Part shown: in pieces, positions 11,536 through 48,540 of the stretch
How positions within the stretch are numbered: position 1 is the stretch's first letter
How the letters are laid out: every line of letters starts with the position of its first letter
Assembly: GCF_900115975.1 (NCBI RefSeq)
Contig: NZ_FOYM01000029.1
Location: 1-51,756 of the forward strand
Origin: Desulfoscipio geothermicus DSM 3669
Lineage (GTDB): Bacteria; Bacillota; Desulfotomaculia; Desulfotomaculales; Desulfallaceae
Direction: 5' to 3'
Length of the DNA: 51,756 nt
Position numbers and translations under genes: made by a program
The notes under the pieces: generated by a model
What the model was told of the DNA's origin: nothing
Seen by the model: the letters and a program-made list of their open reading frames with translations, nothing else
The model's database searches: none

Positions 11536-13256
11536 TTGCGCAACACCCGCAGCAGGTCCGGCAGCGGCAGCGTATTTAACACATGCGACGGCTCCAACCA
11601 AGCCCGCCGGGCCACCGAAACGCCGTAAACCATTTCATCCAGTCGTCGCCGGTCGTGGGCGTCTGTATTTATAGCCACCGGCACGCCGCTTTCGCGGGCC
11701 AGTTGCACATAAAACTCGCTCAAGTCCAGCCGGTCCGGCGAGGCGTTGATTTCCAGCACCTTGTTGTGCCGCGCGGCCGCCTCGATGATTTCTTCTACAT
11801 CTACGGCGTAAGGTTCCCGGTGCCCCAAAAGCCGCCCCGTGGGATGCCCGATGATATCCACATGGTCATTTTCAATGGCCGCCAGAATTCTCCGGGTTAT
11901 CCGGTCCTTATCCTGCTTGAAACCGCTGTGTATCGACGCGATCACCAAGTCGACCCGGGCCAGCACCTCATCGGGATGATCCAGGCTGCCGTCCGCCAGT
12001 ATGTCCACCTCCACGCCGGTGAGCACGTAAAAGTCCTCCCACTTTTTATTCAATTCCCGAATCTTTTCATGCTGGGCCAGCAATCTTTCCCGCGAAAGCC
12101 CCCGGGCAATTTTCAGGGACGTGGAATGGTCGGTGATGGCTAAGTACGAATAGCCTTTTTCCCGGGCCTGCTGCACCATCTCCTCAATACTGCACGCGCC
12201 GTCGCTCCAGTCGGTATGTACGTGCAGGTCACCCCGGATGTCGGCCAACTCCAGCAGCCGGGGCAGTTCGCCCCGGGCCGCTGCGTTGATTTCTCCGTAG
12301 TTTTCCCGCAGCTCCGGGGCCACATATTGCAAACCCAGCAAGCGGTATATATCTTCTTCACTGCTTACCGGGGCTGTTTGCCTGTCCCGGCGGGAAACCA
12401 TGCCAAACCGGTCCAAACGCCAGCCCTGCCGCCAGGCCGTCATCTGCAGGCGGCGAAAGTGCTGCTCACTGCCGGTGCTCCAGAGCAAGGTGAACCAGTA
12501 TTGCTCCCGCGGCACCGCGATTAATTCCACCGGCACCCCCCAGCGGCTGACAGCCTGCACCCGGTCCTTGTCACGCCAGGTTGCTTCTCCCAAGCCGGGG
12601 TGCAAAAGAAAGGCGTCCAGTATTTCCGCCGCGTCATCCGGGTTCCGGACAACAGCCAAAAGGTCTATGCTGTCAACCAGCTCGGCCCAGCGCCTGATAT
12701 CCCCGGTAACAGTGACCGCTTCCACTTTAACCATCTGCTCCAGGTACTCGTGCAGCGCCAACGCCAGTTCCCGGGCCGCCCCCAGCGGAAGCCGGCGCGC
12801 CTGTTTTTTCATACGGCTGATATTACGCACTAGCTCCTGTTCGATTTTTGCGCCCATACCGGGCAGTTCCCGAATTTTCCCGGCCCGGGCCGCCTTATCA
12901 AGCTCCGTCACGGTGGTTATTCCCAGCTGTTCATATATCAGCCGGGCCCTTTTGGGTCCCAGCCCGGGCAAGCTCATCATTTCCGTCAGCGATGCAGGTA
13001 TTTCCTCTTTAAGTTCCTTGTGCAGCCGGCATTCTCCGCTGTCCAGCAGTTCACCGATTTTGGCAATGATGTTTTTGCCCAAGCCCGGCACCTCTTTTAA
13101 TGCCCCGCCGGCATAAAGCTCCTTGACGGGACGATCAAGCCCGGCAATGGCCCTGGCGGCCCGCCGGTAGGCCCGTATCTTGAAAAATTCCTCTCCTTTG
13201 AATTCCAATAAGTCGGCTATTTCATAAAAAACCCAGGCAATTTCCATGTTTCGCAC
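11532..13256 (-). CDS. polX: PolX-family DNA polymerase / PHP exonuclease
   Basis: Bacterial PolX joins a family X polymerase to a PHP 3'-5' exonuclease and acts in base-excision repair. N-terminal helix-hairpin-helix segments carry LPGLGPKRA and LPGMGAKIE. The nucleotidyltransferase region (about 180-290) and the PHP domain (about 340-574), with HVHTDWSDG and ITDHS, are in the usual order. The polymerase metal site looks altered: the family GDID is VDSID (Ser at about 196, Asp at 198), and the third Asp position reads VPVELIAV, a Glu. The PHP ligands appear intact. A GTG at 13256 is chosen as start because AGGGG lies 10 bases upstream; an ATG at 13247 and a TTG at 13301 are alternatives. Confidence 0.88.
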
Positions 13257-42834: not shown

Positions 42835-42917
42835 GTCGGAGTGGCGGAATCGGCAGACGCGTACGTTTGAGGGGCGTATGGGCAACCGTGCGGGTTCAAG
42901 TCCCGCCTCCGACACCA
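42835..42917 (+). tRNA. tRNA-Leu(GAG)
   Basis: Acceptor GTCGGAG/CTCCGAC, anticodon stem TACGT/GCGTA with loop TTGAGGG (anticodon GAG), a class II variable arm, T arm GCGGG/CCCGC, and an encoded CCA (42915-42917). Its last 21 bases are repeated at 44401-44421. Confidence 0.95.
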
Positions 42918-43198
42918 GTTAAAAACCGCACATTATTGTGTGTTGAAATTTCGGTGCTTTGAACCTGAACCGGGTCCGCATACCAGTAAATCGTAATACG
43001 GCTTGCAGTAGGATCAAATTCCATTCGGCGTATAAATGTACGTATGAATTCTCTGCGTTCCCGGTTGGTTCCTTGTGCTAGAACTTGGTCAAGACTTTCA
43101 ATGTATTCTTTTAATCGTAATACATCAATTTTTTCGAGAACTGGCTTATTAATGGTCAGTTTTTCTTTTTCCTGCTCAAGCTCATCGAAGTGAAGCAT
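42896..43198 (-). pseudogene. C-terminal remnant of a large serine recombinase
   Basis: One hundred codons whose product (KEYIESLDQVLAQGTNRER, then EFIRTFIRRMEFDPTASRI) resembles the C-terminal coiled-coil/tail of large serine recombinases. The catalytic Ser domain and zinc ribbon are missing: the frame stops resembling a gene at 43198, right beside the hicB fragment on the other strand. The last codons (VGGGT, stop) are read from the tRNA-Leu repeat itself, so the gene end lay on the attachment site. Family call is by pattern only. Confidence 0.6.
42897..42917 (+). repeat. attL-like direct repeat (3' end of tRNA-Leu)
   Basis: A 21-base segment from CAAGTCCCGC through CGACACCA, identical to 44401-44421. 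It covers half of the T arm, the acceptor 3' strand and CCA. Confidence 0.9.
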
Positions 43199-43200
43199 AC

Positions 43201-43389
43201 ATGAATATTAAATACCCTGTTGTTATAACCAAGTTGGCCGGCGGGGAATGGCTGGCCGAGCATAAGGATTTGCCTGGCTGGAAAATTCACGGGTCTACTC
43301 CCGAAGAAGCCATAACCAGGTTGGAAGAGGTAAAGCTGTTGTATAGGCGGTTAGTTAATTATTGTTTTCATTTTATCTTGACAAGTTAA
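43201..43389 (+). pseudogene. Truncated HicB-family antitoxin
   Basis: MNIKYPVVITKLAGGEWLAEHKDLPGWKIHGSTPEEAITRLEEVKLL matches the N-terminal HicB fold (partial RNase H-like, with the D-LPG segment). After that the frame runs into unrelated sequence and stops. The C-terminal DNA-binding part and any hicA partner are absent. Confidence 0.7.
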
Positions 43390-43404
43390 GTAAGGCTAAT
43401 TTTA

Positions 43405-43579
43405 ATACATGATTGTTGTGTTTTTGGATATCCCCATCTCCCGCATGTATTTTTGTACCGTGGGCCTGCTAATGCTAAAGAATGCCGTACTCCGAAGCAA
43501 TTTGAGAAATGGTTTTTTCTTCCTTGAAAATTTCCAGTACAACCTTTGCTTTAAACTCTCCTGAATATGTTTTTCTCAT
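43405..43579 (-). pseudogene. IS3-family transposase relic (orfA start joined to an orfB fragment)
   Basis: On the minus strand an ATG at 43577-43579 encodes [20 protein letters not shown] then [13 protein letters not shown], a typical IS3 OrfA N-terminus, and stops. A second frame directly after reads ISRPTVQKYMREMGIS, an IS3 OrfB segment. The middle of the element has been deleted. No inverted repeats are visible. Confidence 0.75.
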
Positions 43580-43781
43580 GGCATCATTGTACACCTTAAA
43601 AAAGGCCGTTTTATTGTTCAAATTTCTTTATCCATTATATCTTGGCTTGATCAACCATTATAAGACACTCCTTCGATTTCGATATATATGGGAAAATAAA
43701 AACAACAAAGCGTAAGCCTTGTCGTTATTGTTCTAAATTACAGGATATGGTATAATATTTTAACTATGAGAGGTGTTGTTG

Positions 43782-44018
43782 ATGGCCGCTAATATCGAAC
43801 GACTAATTAAGGAAATTAAAAGTTTGTCGCCAACCGAAAAAATTGAGCTTGCCCGAAGACTGGATGAGGAAGCTATATTCAGCAATCAATCCTGGTACTG
43901 GACACCCGAATGGCAAGCTGCAGAAAAAGAGGCTGACGAAGATATAGCCGCAGGTCGGGTTCACCGGTTCAAAAATGTTAATGATGCCCTAAAATTTTTA
44001 CATGAGCAAGCAGAATAA
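43782..44018 (+). CDS. Antitoxin of a RelBE-type pair
   Basis: A 78-residue acidic protein starting with a helical segment (NIERLIKEIKSLSPTEKIELARRLDEEA) and ending in a charged tail. Small proteins of this kind (the addiction-module component family) neutralise the RelE/ParE toxin encoded just downstream. AGAGGTG lies 6 bases before the ATG at 43782; the TTG at 43773 is less well placed. The toxin starts 17 bases after its stop. A TATAATATT upstream (about 43752) may be its -10. Confidence 0.75.
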   Translation: MAANIERLIKEIKSLSPTEKIELARRLDEEAIFSNQSWYWTPEWQAAEKEADEDIAAGRVHRFKNVNDALKFLHEQAE

Positions 44019-44035
44019 GCTAGCGGAGAGAAAAA

Positions 44036-44302
44036 ATGTTCAATCTTGAGCTAACTAATAGATTTGTTCGGTCGTATAAAAAACTTGATCGAGCGATACG
44101 TTTACAAGTAGACAAAACTCTCCAAGTTATGGTTATAAACCCCAGCCACCCTTCATTACGTCTAAAAAGAGTACAAGGAACGAAAGATATTTGGGAAGCC
44201 AGTGTGAATATGTCTATTAGGATTACGTTAAGTTTTTCGGAAGATACTATTCAACTGAGAAACGTCGGTACTCACGAACAGGTTTTCAGACCGCCATATT
44301 GA
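44036..44302 (+). CDS. RelE/ParE-family toxin
   Basis: An 88-residue basic protein with the RelE/YafQ fold signature: TNRFVRSYKKLDRAIRLQVDKTL, then LRLKRVQGTKDIWEASVNMSIRITLSF and a C-terminal LRNVGTHEQVFR. Family members cut mRNA on the ribosome or poison gyrase; the conserved Arg and His near the C-terminus (RI, GTHEQVF) are present. The frame is complete and followed by a strong terminator, so the pair looks functional. Confidence 0.8.
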   Translation: MFNLELTNRFVRSYKKLDRAIRLQVDKTLQVMVINPSHPSLRLKRVQGTKDIWEASVNMSIRITLSFSEDTIQLRNVGTHEQVFRPPY

Positions 44303-44320
44303 GTTTTTTCAAAATCGACA

Positions 44321-44356
44321 AAAGAAATACCGGAGCTAGTCCGGTATTTCTTTAGT
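44321..44356 (+). terminator. Terminator of the RelBE-type operon
   Basis: AAAGAAATACCGG (44321-44333) pairs perfectly with 44341-44353 around a 7-base loop. The stem itself ends in TTTCTTT. Confidence 0.85.
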
Positions 44357-44400
44357 AAAACTATAAGTTTAAATCCATTTCAGTAGTGAGGCTTTTAGGA

Positions 44401-44421
44401 CAAGTCCCGCCTCCGACACCA
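44401..44421 (+). repeat. attR-like direct repeat
   Basis: Exact copy of the last 21 bases of tRNA-Leu (42897-42917), including CCA. The base on either side differs, so the identity is exactly 21 bases. No tRNA body accompanies it. Confidence 0.9.
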
Positions 44422-44477
44422 CACCGAATACCACACATAGTGATGATGATATACAAACTGAATTTAACTTTTGAAGG

Positions 44478-44509
44478 ACTCGGCTGACTGGCCGAGTTAT
44501 TTTATTTTT
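44478..44509 (+). terminator. Probable original tRNA-Leu terminator
   Basis: ACTCGGC (44478-44484) pairs with GCCGAGT (44491-44497), followed by TATTTTATTTTT. It lies after the right repeat, where the tRNA terminator would be if the island were removed. Confidence 0.75.
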
Positions 44510-44693
44510 CCTTGCGCCGGTCCATCTCTTTGAACAGGTCCTGTAATAATCGCATACCCTCTTTCATGGCGAAAAAAGCAGAAGAGGGAAACCCATAGGC
44601 CTCCACAGCCAGTTTCCCTCTTCCCTTATGACTTTCGTCAAGACAATCATAATGGGTTGGCAAACCAATGTCCAGACATATGGCAGTCTTCAG
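44502..44693 (-). pseudogene. Unidentified gene remnant
   Basis: A 63-codon open frame that starts abruptly after a stop codon, with no start codon or ribosome-binding site: LKTAICLDIGLPTHYDCLDE onward, ending FFAMKEGMRLLQDLFKEMDRRKEK. The amino-acid pattern looks like real protein, so I read it as the C-terminal end of a disrupted gene. I do not recognise the family. Confidence 0.4.
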
Positions 44694-44762
44694 TTATTGT
44701 CTTTTAGCAAAGGGTTAGGATACAATATAGTAAATAAATGTTATTAGATGGGAGGGGTAATT

Positions 44763-44987
44763 ATGGAGTCAGCAGTATTAAAAGAAATTCAAAATCATTT
44801 ACTAACGCTTACCCCTGAACAACAGAAAAAAGTGTTGCAGTATATTAAATCATTTAGCTCACCTTCTAAAGAATTCAGTGGTAAAGAATTACTGAAGTTC
44901 ATTGGAGCTATTGATAAAGAAGACCTGGAAAAAATGACTTTGGCAATTCAAGATGGATGTGAAAAAATAGATTATGCCGAATGGTAA
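44763..44987 (+). CDS. Antitoxin of a VapBC-type pair
   Basis: A 74-residue protein with a helical N-terminus (VLKEIQNHLLTLTPEQQKKVLQYIKSF) and a short acidic C-terminal tail, as in antitoxins paired with PIN-domain toxins. GGGAGGGG precedes the ATG at 44763. It overlaps the following toxin frame by 14 bases. The partner is broken, so this antitoxin is now probably an orphan. Confidence 0.65.
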   Translation: MESAVLKEIQNHLLTLTPEQQKKVLQYIKSFSSPSKEFSGKELLKFIGAIDKEDLEKMTLAIQDGCEKIDYAEW

Positions 44988-45201
44988 ATATTTATTGGAT
45001 ACCAATATTGTCATTGCTTTAATGGCCGGTGATAAAATCATTAGGCAACGCCTGGAAGAAACGGAAGCAGTGTATTTATCAACCGTGGTATTCGGAGAAC
45101 TTTGCTATGACGCTCAAAATTCCGCGCGAGCGGAGAGCAACATGGGTTTGTCCACTAATCTTTCCTCAACCCCCGCAGGTCGGGTCGGGTGCACCTCCTG
45201 A
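44974..45201 (+). pseudogene. Truncated VapC-type PIN-domain toxin
   Basis: The first 57 or so residues, KYLLDTNIVIALMAGDKIIRQ to VVFGELCYDAQNSARAESNM, match a PIN-domain toxin with the first acidic residues (Asp of LDTN, Glu of GELC). From about 45147 the reading frame runs into GC-rich unrelated sequence, and the remaining acidic residues of the active site are missing. Confidence 0.75.
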
Positions 45202-45724: not shown

Positions 45725-47407
45725 TTATGCTTGCAATTGCCGTAATATAGTTTGTAATTGTTCTATTTTTAAATGTGGAGAGTTCTGCAAAAGATCTATG
45801 CTTCGTCCAAATTTATTAAATACATCTCCATTTGCCTTTCTCAACATGAATTTTCCCAGTCTATTCTGAGAAGCAGTTGGAACAGTTCGTCCAAACAAGT
45901 CTATTACACTGGGGCAAGCAGTTCTATCATCACGATATAAAAATGAGTATTCAATTTCTTTTCTCTTATTATGAAATTTTTCCTGTATCTCAACATGGTT
46001 ATTACTTGCCAGTGTATTTAACCAATCAATAATTTCATCCCTACTTACTCCAATTACATAAGCTAAGTGCGAAGGATCAATAAAATATGCTTCAATATCT
46101 GATCCATCAGTCACAAACGGTATAGTATTGTGCCCAGATATCTTTTCATTAACTCTTGATACTTCCTCATCGGTCATGAAATCACGATCCCGATGAATTA
46201 TGACTTTGCAGTTTGGCGCACTTCGATGGATAAAGTCAGATAACTGTATTGCGGTTTCGGTGTTGCTACAACCTTTATACGGAACAATTAGTGTATTGTT
46301 CATATTAAAACTATTATAAGTTAAAAGTCGTTTTGCCATCTTTACTTTTTCATCTTCAGTTAAAAAAACGCACGAATACGTACCATTAATTACTTTATCA
46401 AAAGTATCCAATGCTCCAATATCCATTAAAACACTATACATATATGGTGAATCATTGCTTTGATTTACTCTTCCATTCTTAAGCCAAATAAATTTCGCTT
46501 CATCGTCCAATGCTGTAAGCATATGCCTACTGTGAGTACAAATAATTATTTGTGTATTTAATTTATCAGCCAGTAGTTTTAGGGCATCTACCAACAACAA
46601 CTGATTATTGGGGTGTAAATGTTCATCTGGTTCATCAAGTAGCAAAAGCTTGGGTTTAAACAATAGAACATACGCCATTATTTGCACTATTTGCAAAAAC
46701 CCCGTACCACTCAATTCTATCGGTAAAGATGTTCCATTTTCATTAATTGTTACTTTGATGTTTAAATCTTGTTCTGGGTTATAAGGCAACATAATAGAAG
46801 TCGAAGGAAATATCTTATTTATTAATTCATTTAATTTAGGTAAATCCCCATTTTCTTTTATGTAATATAATATGTTACGCAAGTAAAGATTTGCATCACC
46901 ATTTGCTGTTGCACTTCTGATTACGGCTTTTGTTTGTAGCTTTTCCTCTAATGGTATGCCGGAAAGACCGGGGACATAAACAGAGTATAAATCTGTGTAT
47001 GAGGTAACCAATTGACGAAATGGATTATTGGGGCGGCATTTTATACTAATATTTTCAAAATTTCTGCCCTTACTAATTGTAATGGAAAAAGAGTCTGCAT
47101 TTTCTCCATCGCTAAAAGTATCGCTAGTTAAAGTAAGTTTACTTGTATTTCCAGAATAATTCGTATAAGGAGTACCGTGGCGCAAAACTGTAAAATCTGA
47201 AGATGGTAAATATAGAAGACTGTGTTGCGAAACAGTTTCTCTCCCAGAGTTGCGACGAACAGCTTCTGCTAAAATATTAAAATGAATGCCTTGTAATACA
47301 CTACTCTTTCCCGAGTTGTTAGCTCCAACTATTACATTTATTTTATCCAAATCAGTATCAAAATCTACTGCATTTTTGAAGTTTTCTAATTTAACGTGCT
47401 TTATCAT
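45725..47407 (-). CDS. AAA/ABC-type ATPase with C-terminal Toprim domain (OLD-family nuclease)
   Basis: A 560-residue protein of the OLD (overcoming lysogenization defect) type. The N-terminal ATPase has Walker A GANNSGKSS (about 28-36), a signature ELSGTGFLQI, Walker B KLLLLDEPDEHLHP and the H-loop ICTHSRHML. The C-terminal part has CVFLTEDEK and VIIHRDRDFMTDEEV, then SDIEAYF, as in Toprim nucleases of this group. Relatives include GajA of Gabija and phage P2 Old, which defend against phages. No UvrD-like GajB is beside it; the neighbour is a recombinase. Start ATG has AGAAGGA upstream. Confidence 0.82.
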   Translation of the reverse strand: MIKHVKLENFKNAVDFDTDLDKINVIVGANNSGKSSVLQGIHFNILAEAVRRNSGRETVSQHSLLYLPSSDFTVLRHGTPYTNYSGNTSKLTLTSDTFSDGENADSFSITISKGRNFENISIKCRPNNPFRQLVTSYTDLYSVYVPGLSGIPLEEKLQTKAVIRSATANGDANLYLRNILYYIKENGDLPKLNELINKIFPSTSIMLPYNPEQDLNIKVTINENGTSLPIELSGTGFLQIVQIMAYVLLFKPKLLLLDEPDEHLHPNNQLLLVDALKLLADKLNTQIIICTHSRHMLTALDDEAKFIWLKNGRVNQSNDSPYMYSVLMDIGALDTFDKVINGTYSCVFLTEDEKVKMAKRLLTYNSFNMNNTLIVPYKGCSNTETAIQLSDFIHRSAPNCKVIIHRDRDFMTDEEVSRVNEKISGHNTIPFVTDGSDIEAYFIDPSHLAYVIGVSRDEIIDWLNTLASNNHVEIQEKFHNKRKEIEYSFLYRDDRTACPSVIDLFGRTVPTASQNRLGKFMLRKANGDVFNKFGRSIDLLQNSPHLKIEQLQTILRQLQA

Positions 47408-47604
47408 TGGTACTCAATCCTTCTAATTTAATTTAATAAAAAGTTTACTGCTTTCCTAAAAAATAATTATAAAAAATTATATAATTTTTTTATAATTGCC
47501 ACCCTAGTATTATATAATTCACAATATCATTAATGATCTTCCCATTATAGACAATCGTTATCTCCTGCAAATTATGTCAAAACTATTTGCAAGGAGATGA
47601 TTTC

Positions 47605-48540
47605 ATGCAATCTAATAGAACCTGTCCGCTAATTGAGCAATACTTGGGGTATCTTACAGTAATAAAGGGTCGTTCTGAAAACACAATTAAGGAGTATCGA
47701 ACAGATTTGCTTATGTTTTTCGACTTTGTGATGCTTTCTCGCAATAAACCTATACATAACAAAAATTTTGCTAGGGTAGATTTGGAATTCATACAAACTA
47801 TTTCGCTTAACGATATGTATGCTTTCATTGCCTATTGCCAAACTGAACTGAATGCTTCTGCCGGTACGCGAGCAAGAAAAATTGTATCTATCCGTCAATT
47901 TTGGAAATACCTCAAAACCAAGGCTCATCTTATAGATAACAATATTGCAGAAGAATTGGAAACACCAAAACTTCCAAAAAGGATACCCAAATACCTTAGC
48001 CTTGAGGAATCCGTCAAGCTGTTAATCGCTTGTAATAATTCCCCTCGGGATCATTGTATCATCACAATTTTCCTCAATTGTGCTTTGCGGTTATCTGAAC
48101 TGGCTAGTTTAAACATAGACCAAGTAGATAATGAGGTAATCAGTATCGTTGGCAAGGGAAATAAGGAGCGTAAGGTCTTTTTGACCCCAGCAGCTAAAAG
48201 GTCAATTAACGGTTGGCTTCAAATTAGAAATTCTCTTGATGTCCCGTCAAAGGCGTTGTTTATCTCAAGGAACAATAGACGTATAACGACCAGGGCCATC
48301 CAAAACGTCGTTAAGAAATATGTGATAGCTTCGGGGCTTGATCCTAAATATATATCTACGCATAAACTTCGTCATACGGCTGCTACGCTTATGTACAAGT
48401 ATGGCAGAGTCGATATACGGTCACTTCAACAAATACTGGAGCATGAGAGTGTTGCTACAACTGAAATCTATACACATATTGATGAACATCAATTGCAATC
48501 AGCCGTTAATTCAAATCCGCTTGCAATGATGTTTAATTAA
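47605..48540 (+). CDS. Tyrosine recombinase (XerC/D-like integrase)
   Basis: A 311-residue phage-integrase-family protein. An N-terminal SAM-like core-binding domain (about 1-110, EYRTDLLMFFDFV) is followed by the catalytic domain: Arg in CALRLSELASL, Lys in GKGNKERKV, HKLRH, then LEHESVATTEIYTHI with His and nucleophile Tyr. All catalytic residues are present; the usual LGH is LEH. The ATG at 47605 has AAGGAG 8 bases upstream. Divergent from the OLD nuclease; likely mobilises or moved the surrounding segment, or acts in an invertible switch. Confidence 0.88.
   Translation: MQSNRTCPLIEQYLGYLTVIKGRSENTIKEYRTDLLMFFDFVMLSRNKPIHNKNFARVDLEFIQTISLNDMYAFIAYCQTELNASAGTRARKIVSIRQFWKYLKTKAHLIDNNIAEELETPKLPKRIPKYLSLEESVKLLIACNNSPRDHCIITIFLNCALRLSELASLNIDQVDNEVISIVGKGNKERKVFLTPAAKRSINGWLQIRNSLDVPSKALFISRNNRRITTRAIQNVVKKYVIASGLDPKYISTHKLRHTAATLMYKYGRVDIRSLQQILEHESVATTEIYTHIDEHQLQSAVNSNPLAMMFN

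What the first reader, a model, noticed from the sequence alone, without database searches (positions are those of the whole stretch)
42897..44421. 1.5-kb mini-island in tRNA-Leu(GAG) bounded by 21-bp repeats and kept by a toxin-antitoxin pair
The exact tRNA 3' end is repeated 1.5 kb downstream, and the likely original tRNA terminator sits right after the second copy. Inside, everything but the RelBE-type pair is broken. This looks like a collapsed integrative element that survives because loss would release the toxin.
Basis: partly seen in the sequence, partly recalled or inferred. Interest (0 to 1): 0.6.

Follow-up and report, generated by a model that had tools for sequence, protein, structure and literature searches.

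The report
Collapsed serine-integrase island in a tRNA
A 1.5-kb stretch after a leucine tRNA gene is the worn-down remains of a mobile element whose integration enzyme, of a kind not thought to target tRNA genes, took its last amino acids and stop codon from the tRNA it invaded.

Summary
The last 21 bp of tRNA-Leu(GAG) recur exactly at 44401-44421, the only two copies in the genome. The 1.5 kb between is a collapsed integrative element. The last 49 bp of the window's island, repeat included, match G046's far end at 92%. In three relatives without the insert the tRNA runs straight into the flank that follows repeat 2 here. In this LSR clade the gene runs into the target: at 14 of 22 distinct LSR/RNA-gene junctions the stop is a TGA ending 22 nt inside the tRNA, antisense of the T-loop. 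Rejoined element ends predict a longer tail in the free form, so integration should swap the enzyme's C-terminus. A source I read says serine integrases are not known to target tRNA genes. The toxin-antitoxin pair is intact and conserved; that it keeps the island is unproven.

The parts
42835..42917 (+). tRNA-Leu(GAG), target gene; its 3' part is the restored end at attL
   Evidence: ARAGORN
42897..42917 (+). 21-bp repeat, copy 1, from the T-loop to the 3' CCA
42896..43198 (-). C-terminal 100 codons of a large serine recombinase; the stop codon TGA (42896-42898) and the last codons lie inside the tRNA gene
   Evidence: 74% identity to P0001 of G046; in-tRNA stop
43201..43389 (+). 62-aa ORF, probably a gene fragment; no family assigned
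   Evidence: no Pfam match; weak MutT matches far below cut-off in NCBIfam
43402..43621 (-). fragments of an IS3-like transposase in two frames
   Evidence: HTH_Tnp_1 E 2.6e-4 and HTH_21 E 0.008, both below the curated cut-offs; 75% DNA match to a transposase in L052
43782..44018 (+). antitoxin-like gene, 78 aa, intact
   Evidence: conserved beside the toxin in 7 of 7 loci compared
44036..44302 (+). RelE/ParE-like toxin gene, 88 aa, intact
   Evidence: RelE_StbE E 0.0014, ParE-like E 0.001, below cut-offs; family constraint
44318..44356 (+). 17-bp inverted repeat, likely terminator of the pair
44373..44400 (+). element side of attR (28 bp)
   Evidence: with copy 2, 49 bp at 91.8% identity to the far end of the G046 element
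44401..44421 (+). 21-bp repeat, copy 2: displaced original end of the tRNA (attR)
44422..44510 (+). ancestral downstream flank and terminator of the tRNA
   Evidence: same flank directly after the tRNA in G022, G092, G073

Best explanation
This is the relic of an integrative element driven by a large serine recombinase (LSR) that inserted at the 3' end of tRNA-Leu(GAG). Shown by sequence: recombination left a restored tRNA (attL) and a displaced 21-bp copy (attR); the LSR gene runs antisense into the tRNA and stops at the TGA opposite the T-loop; both element ends match a full 15.4-kb LSR element in a relative. Inferred: deletions and a transposon insertion removed all but the last 100 codons of the LSR and about 28 bp at the other end, so the remnant can no longer excise itself; that alone explains its persistence. 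An intact toxin-antitoxin operon remains; whether it came with the element or later is unknown. Inferred for the clade: the attachment site is part of the recombinase coding sequence, so the integrated form makes a protein ending in tRNA-encoded residues (here GVGGGT) and the circular form a protein with roughly 10-20 further residues.
For: Exact 21-bp repeat unique in the genome. LSR end 74% identical to G046's LSR, which has Resolvase and Recombinase domains and abuts the same tRNA with an exact 21-bp second copy 15.4 kb away. attR arm 49 bp at 91.8%. Empty sites in G022, G092, G073. LSR stop inside the RNA gene at 14 of 22 distinct junctions and the same reading frame in 20 of 22 (L073).
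Against: No excised circle of this remnant can be expected, so its mobility cannot be tested. The middle 1.2 kb has no match to an LSR element, so its origin is unknown. In G002 a related LSR fragment lies away from any tRNA. At 2 of 22 junctions the frame differs (L105, L129), and L135 ends 31 nt before its tmRNA.
Confidence: 0.92

Rival explanations
1. One reading: the island persists because the toxin-antitoxin pair is addictive, and deletion between the repeats would release the toxin.
For: The pair is the only intact unit; both genes are full length in 7 of 7 loci compared, with pN 0.10-0.27 against pS 0.60-0.88; the toxin has no second homologue in the genome.
Against: The recombinase is truncated, so there is no excision to guard against; spontaneous deletion between 21-bp repeats 1.5 kb apart should be rare anyway (general knowledge). 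No toxicity has been tested, and the pair may have arrived after the collapse.
Confidence: 0.25
2. The repeat marks a tyrosine-integrase island, the usual kind at tRNA genes, and the LSR fragment is an unrelated later arrival.
For: Relatives carry a second class of repeat at this tRNA, 49-58 bp from the anticodon loop to the 3' end; in G003 a phage-integrase-like ORF follows the tRNA, inside the first such repeat unit (assigned by eye, not by a family search).
Against: The window's repeat is the 21-bp class, which in G046, G083 and (with one mismatch) G050 flanks LSR elements; the attR arm matches G046's LSR element.
Confidence: 0.03
3. The shared reading frame and tRNA-encoded stop are a passive relic of where the attachment site lies in the ancestral gene; the C-terminal swap has no function.
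For: In that frame the antisense of the T-loop is TGA whenever base 57 is A, so one inherited frame explains all. Free-form tail lengths are what random sequence gives. The window/G046 and G050/G050-internal tail pairs show no significant coding constraint (P 0.23 and 0.19).
Against: The frame is kept in proteins as low as 25-30% identical, with linkers of different length and with different targets: Leu-GAG, Leu-TAA, Cys, Thr, tmRNA. G083 and G050 tails keep 7 of 10 residues despite 10 nucleotide changes (P 0.005; small sample, not independent).
Confidence: 0.6

Closest known systems
tRNA-gene genomic islands (Islander class: tRNA gene, displaced fragment, integrase between)
   Same: Restored tRNA, displaced 3' fragment as direct repeat, integrase gene next to the tRNA, empty sites in relatives
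   Different: The integrase is a large serine recombinase, while the Islander paper (passages) says only tyrosine-family integrases are known to target these genes; and here only the integrase's end is left
Large serine recombinases / phage serine integrases (phiC31, Bxb1, TP901-1, A118; names recalled and seen in listings)
   Same: Full relatives have Resolvase and Recombinase domains, most a zinc-ribbon match
   Different: Targets are 3' ends of tRNA or tmRNA genes; the attachment site lies within the last codons and the target supplies the stop codon. [quoted passage not shown]
Type II toxin-antitoxin modules of the RelE/ParE superfamily
   Same: Two small adjacent genes, antitoxin first, toxin weakly matching ParE-like and RelE/StbE models
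   Different: Scores lie below the curated cut-offs; the antitoxin is unassigned
Integration-dependent change of a phage protein by an att site inside its gene (Brujita-type mycobacteriophage repressor; recalled, no call)
   Same: Recombination at an att site inside a coding sequence changes the C-terminus of the product
   Different: There the immunity repressor changes and the integrase is of the tyrosine type; here it is the serine recombinase itself, and the stop comes from a tRNA gene

Membership tests
tRNA-gene genomic island | intact tRNA gene plus displaced 3' fragment as a direct repeat | tested here: met
tRNA-gene genomic island | empty site in relatives, with the right flank directly after the tRNA | tested here: met
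   G022, G092, G073
tRNA-gene genomic island | an integrase gene on board | tested here: inconclusive
   only the last 100 codons of a serine recombinase remain; full length in relatives
tRNA-gene genomic island | integrase of the tyrosine family, as the Islander paper restricts the term | tested here: not met
   the integrase next to the tRNA is a serine recombinase; restriction quoted from passages
Large serine recombinase | Resolvase and Recombinase domains | tested here: met
   met in 7 of 7 full relatives scanned; the window remnant has lost both domains and matches no model itself
Large serine recombinase | catalyses attP x attB recombination | not testable with these tools
   needs an assay
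RelE/ParE toxin | score above the curated cut-off of a family model | tested here: not met
   PF15781 19.4 bits against 28; TIGR02385 19.0 against 27.9
Type II toxin-antitoxin pair | conserved two-gene operon under constraint | tested here: met
   7 of 7 loci compared, L145-L151
Type II toxin-antitoxin pair | toxicity neutralised by the partner | not testable with these tools
   needs an expression assay

The most novel reading that the evidence does not exclude
In this serine-recombinase clade the host tRNA acts as a sensor of integration state. The target's nearly universal T-loop supplies the stop codon, so the integrated element makes a short-tailed recombinase and the excised circle a long-tailed one, and the tail change sets the direction of recombination (integration-competent when circular, locked when integrated), in addition to or in place of a separate directionality factor.
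Probability: 0.2. Interest if true: 0.85.

Novelty: new variant of a known kind. Interest (0 to 1): 0.6.

Why it matters
Serine integrases are widely used tools, and a source I read states that they are not known to target tRNA genes (PMC4383910). Here a clade does so, at tRNA-Leu, tRNA-Cys, tRNA-Thr and next to tmRNA genes. The most constrained part of the target provides the end of the enzyme, so the protein sequence should change with integration. That is a simple, testable idea for directionality control, and it means that gene callers record only the integrated form of these enzymes. Such integrases could also be of use for insertion at conserved RNA-gene sites.

Tried and rejected
Tyrosine-integrase origin of the window's repeat: rejected (repeat class and attR arm). 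Chance repeat: rejected. Phages and plasmids: the LSR has only distant hits, 11 and 4 records, all under 60% identity, so no free relative was found there. PDB search with the remnant: no credible hit. A far copy was looked for (16 of 20, 15 of 21, or a 9-10-bp seed) and not found for G069, G034, G013 (one 10-bp match, probably chance), G342, G032, G268, G100, G076, G008, G079 (one 9-bp match) and G484, several because the contig ends. The class search drew the same 113 genomes as the order search and added nothing. Structure prediction was not run.

Full report
The observation. The window holds tRNA-Leu(GAG) at 42835-42917. Its last 21 bases recur exactly at 44401-44421. At up to three mismatches only these two copies exist in the window, against a mean of 0.00 in 100 shuffles, and only these two in the 83-contig, 3.65-Mb assembly. 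GC content drops from about 0.5-0.6 to 0.36-0.43 at the tRNA, but the low-GC stretch continues downstream, so composition does not mark the island's right edge.

Empty sites. A DNA search with the tRNA and its upstream bases matched 97 of 100 genomes, own included. In G022, G092 and G073 a single tRNA is followed directly by the sequence that follows repeat 2 in the window: 83% over 54 bp, 94% over 16 bp, 79% over 48 bp. None of the 29 loci L004-L032 shows a second copy within the stretch fetched. So copy 2 is the displaced original tRNA end, and the DNA between is an insertion.

What inserted. The minus-strand ORF 42896-43198 has no credible Pfam or NCBIfam match but finds longer proteins in relatives: 78, 73, 67 and 71% identity in G002, G046, G069 and G032; 16 of 100 genomes searched, own included, matched at E 0.001 or better. 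G046's protein (P0001, 560 aa) has Resolvase and Recombinase domains, as do the six other members scanned. In G046 and G069 the gene abuts the same tRNA. G046 has a second exact 21-bp copy 15.4 kb away. G083 has an exact copy 5.8 kb away and G050 one with a single mismatch 9.8 kb away, each with a more distant LSR, 38-39% identical to P0001. The window's bases 44373-44421 match G046's far end at 91.8%. The two ends of the mini-island therefore belong to one kind of element, of which only the ends survive. G002 holds a degenerate copy of the gene that is not at a tRNA. Relatives also carry a second class of repeat at this tRNA, 49-58 bp long, so the gene is a hot spot.

Inside. Besides the LSR end there are transposase fragments, an unassigned 62-aa ORF, and an intact two-gene pair followed by a hairpin. 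The toxin has no second homologue in this genome. Homologues occur in 47 of 113 genomes of the order, own included. Of those loci I compared seven, L145-L151 (two from one genus); all had the antitoxin next to the toxin and no stops in either, with pN 0.10-0.27 against pS 0.60-0.88. The pair is real and constrained as a family. That it holds the island in place is not shown, and loss of the recombinase is enough to explain persistence.

The recombinase ends in the tRNA. I examined 49 LSR loci, some duplicates. Twenty-three rows had no convergent RNA gene within 250 nt, several at contig ends; 26 rows had one, four of them duplicates. Among those 22 distinct loci the reading frame at the RNA gene is the same in 20 (19 directly; L073 from its coordinates), and L105 and L129 differ. 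In 14 the stop is a TGA ending 22 nt inside the gene: eight at tRNA-Leu(GAG) (window, G046, G069, G050, G083, G418, G484, G100), four at tRNA-Cys (G004, G044, G008, G076), one at tRNA-Leu(TAA) (G034) and one at tRNA-Thr (G268). This TGA is antisense to the T-loop TCA. In five junctions (L073 by its tRNA-Leu, L088, L094, L102, L129) the T-loop has G at that place and no TGA is possible. In L088, L093 and L100 the frame stops before the RNA gene. L135 stops 31 nt before its tmRNA. The junctions are related by descent, so these counts are not independent events.

A tail that depends on integration. Rejoining the element ends, or reading outward from the far copy, gives longer tails: window GVGGGT-CPKSLTTEMDLNL, G046 GVGGGT-CVKNLTTEMDVY, G083 GVGGGT-WVEMLTKISL, G050 GVGGGN-WAEMNIKISL, with a second, internal copy GVGGAN-WAEMNVEISL. 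G044 also extends, with its far copy about 94 kb from the tRNA. G418 and G432 extend too but share only 12 bp with the tRNA; a 12-mer is expected 0.001 times per 20 kb. G083 and G050 keep 7 of 10 tail residues despite 10 of 30 nucleotide changes (P 0.005), G083 and the internal copy 6 of 10 (P 0.002); window/G046 and G050/internal are uninformative (P 0.23, 0.19). These tests are small and not independent. In G038 (an LSR near the tmRNA gene) the assembly itself joins the LSR end to the far-end sequence, reading ...GGGGAYRAISTVPKRT, with a run of N before the tmRNA: probably a sequenced circle or tandem junction, though an assembly fault is possible.

Known work. Passages of PMC4383910 say that only tyrosine-family integrases are known to target tRNA genes. 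Passages of PMC10654092 give 23 tyrosine and six serine attB sites in M. abscessus and mention RNA-gene overlap for 16 of the tyrosine ones. PMC12884075 and PMC12424338 (passages) report island targets in tRNA or tmRNA genes without, in the passages seen, splitting serine from tyrosine. PMC4068962 (passages) says attP normally lies upstream or downstream of the serine integrase gene. The listings held no title or abstract start that describes a serine integrase ending in a tRNA. Two likely relevant papers (2002 integration sites; 2020 island mapping) are not held, so priority is not settled.

Verdict. The new parts are the identity of the integrase and the tRNA-supplied stop codon; the toxin-antitoxin maintenance claim is open.

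Noticed in passing
L056, L058, L059, L060, L061, L062, L064, L065, L067, L068, L069: Relatives carry 49-58-bp partial copies of tRNA-Leu(GAG), anticodon loop to 3' end, near or away from the full gene: a second class of island, probably from tyrosine integrases, uses the same tRNA.
   Followed up: partly
44748-45201: A small ORF followed by a truncated PIN-domain (VapC-like) ORF just outside the island: a broken second toxin-antitoxin pair.
   Followed up: no
45725-47407 (-): 560-aa AAA ATPase resembling OLD/AriA-type defence ATPases.
   Followed up: no
47587-48540 (+): Intact XerC/D-like tyrosine recombinase about 3 kb past the island, perhaps part of another mobile region.
   Followed up: no
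L073 (G342), L102 (G079): Where the T-loop has G at position 57 no TGA is available and the recombinase frame reads on through the antisense of the RNA gene, in G342 past several tRNA genes.
   Followed up: partly
L177, L178 (G038:C31): The assembly joins the recombinase end to the far-end sequence of the same element (more than 90 identical bases) with N before the tmRNA gene: a likely sequenced circle junction.
   Followed up: partly
L052 (G032): An IS3-like transposase interrupts the recombinase at the same tRNA in G032, and a related fragment sits beside the remnant in the window; such insertions may drive the collapse.
   Followed up: no
L054 rc position 11833 (G050): A third, internal attachment-like copy with the same coding tail lies inside the G050 element, suggesting two elements in tandem.
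   Followed up: no
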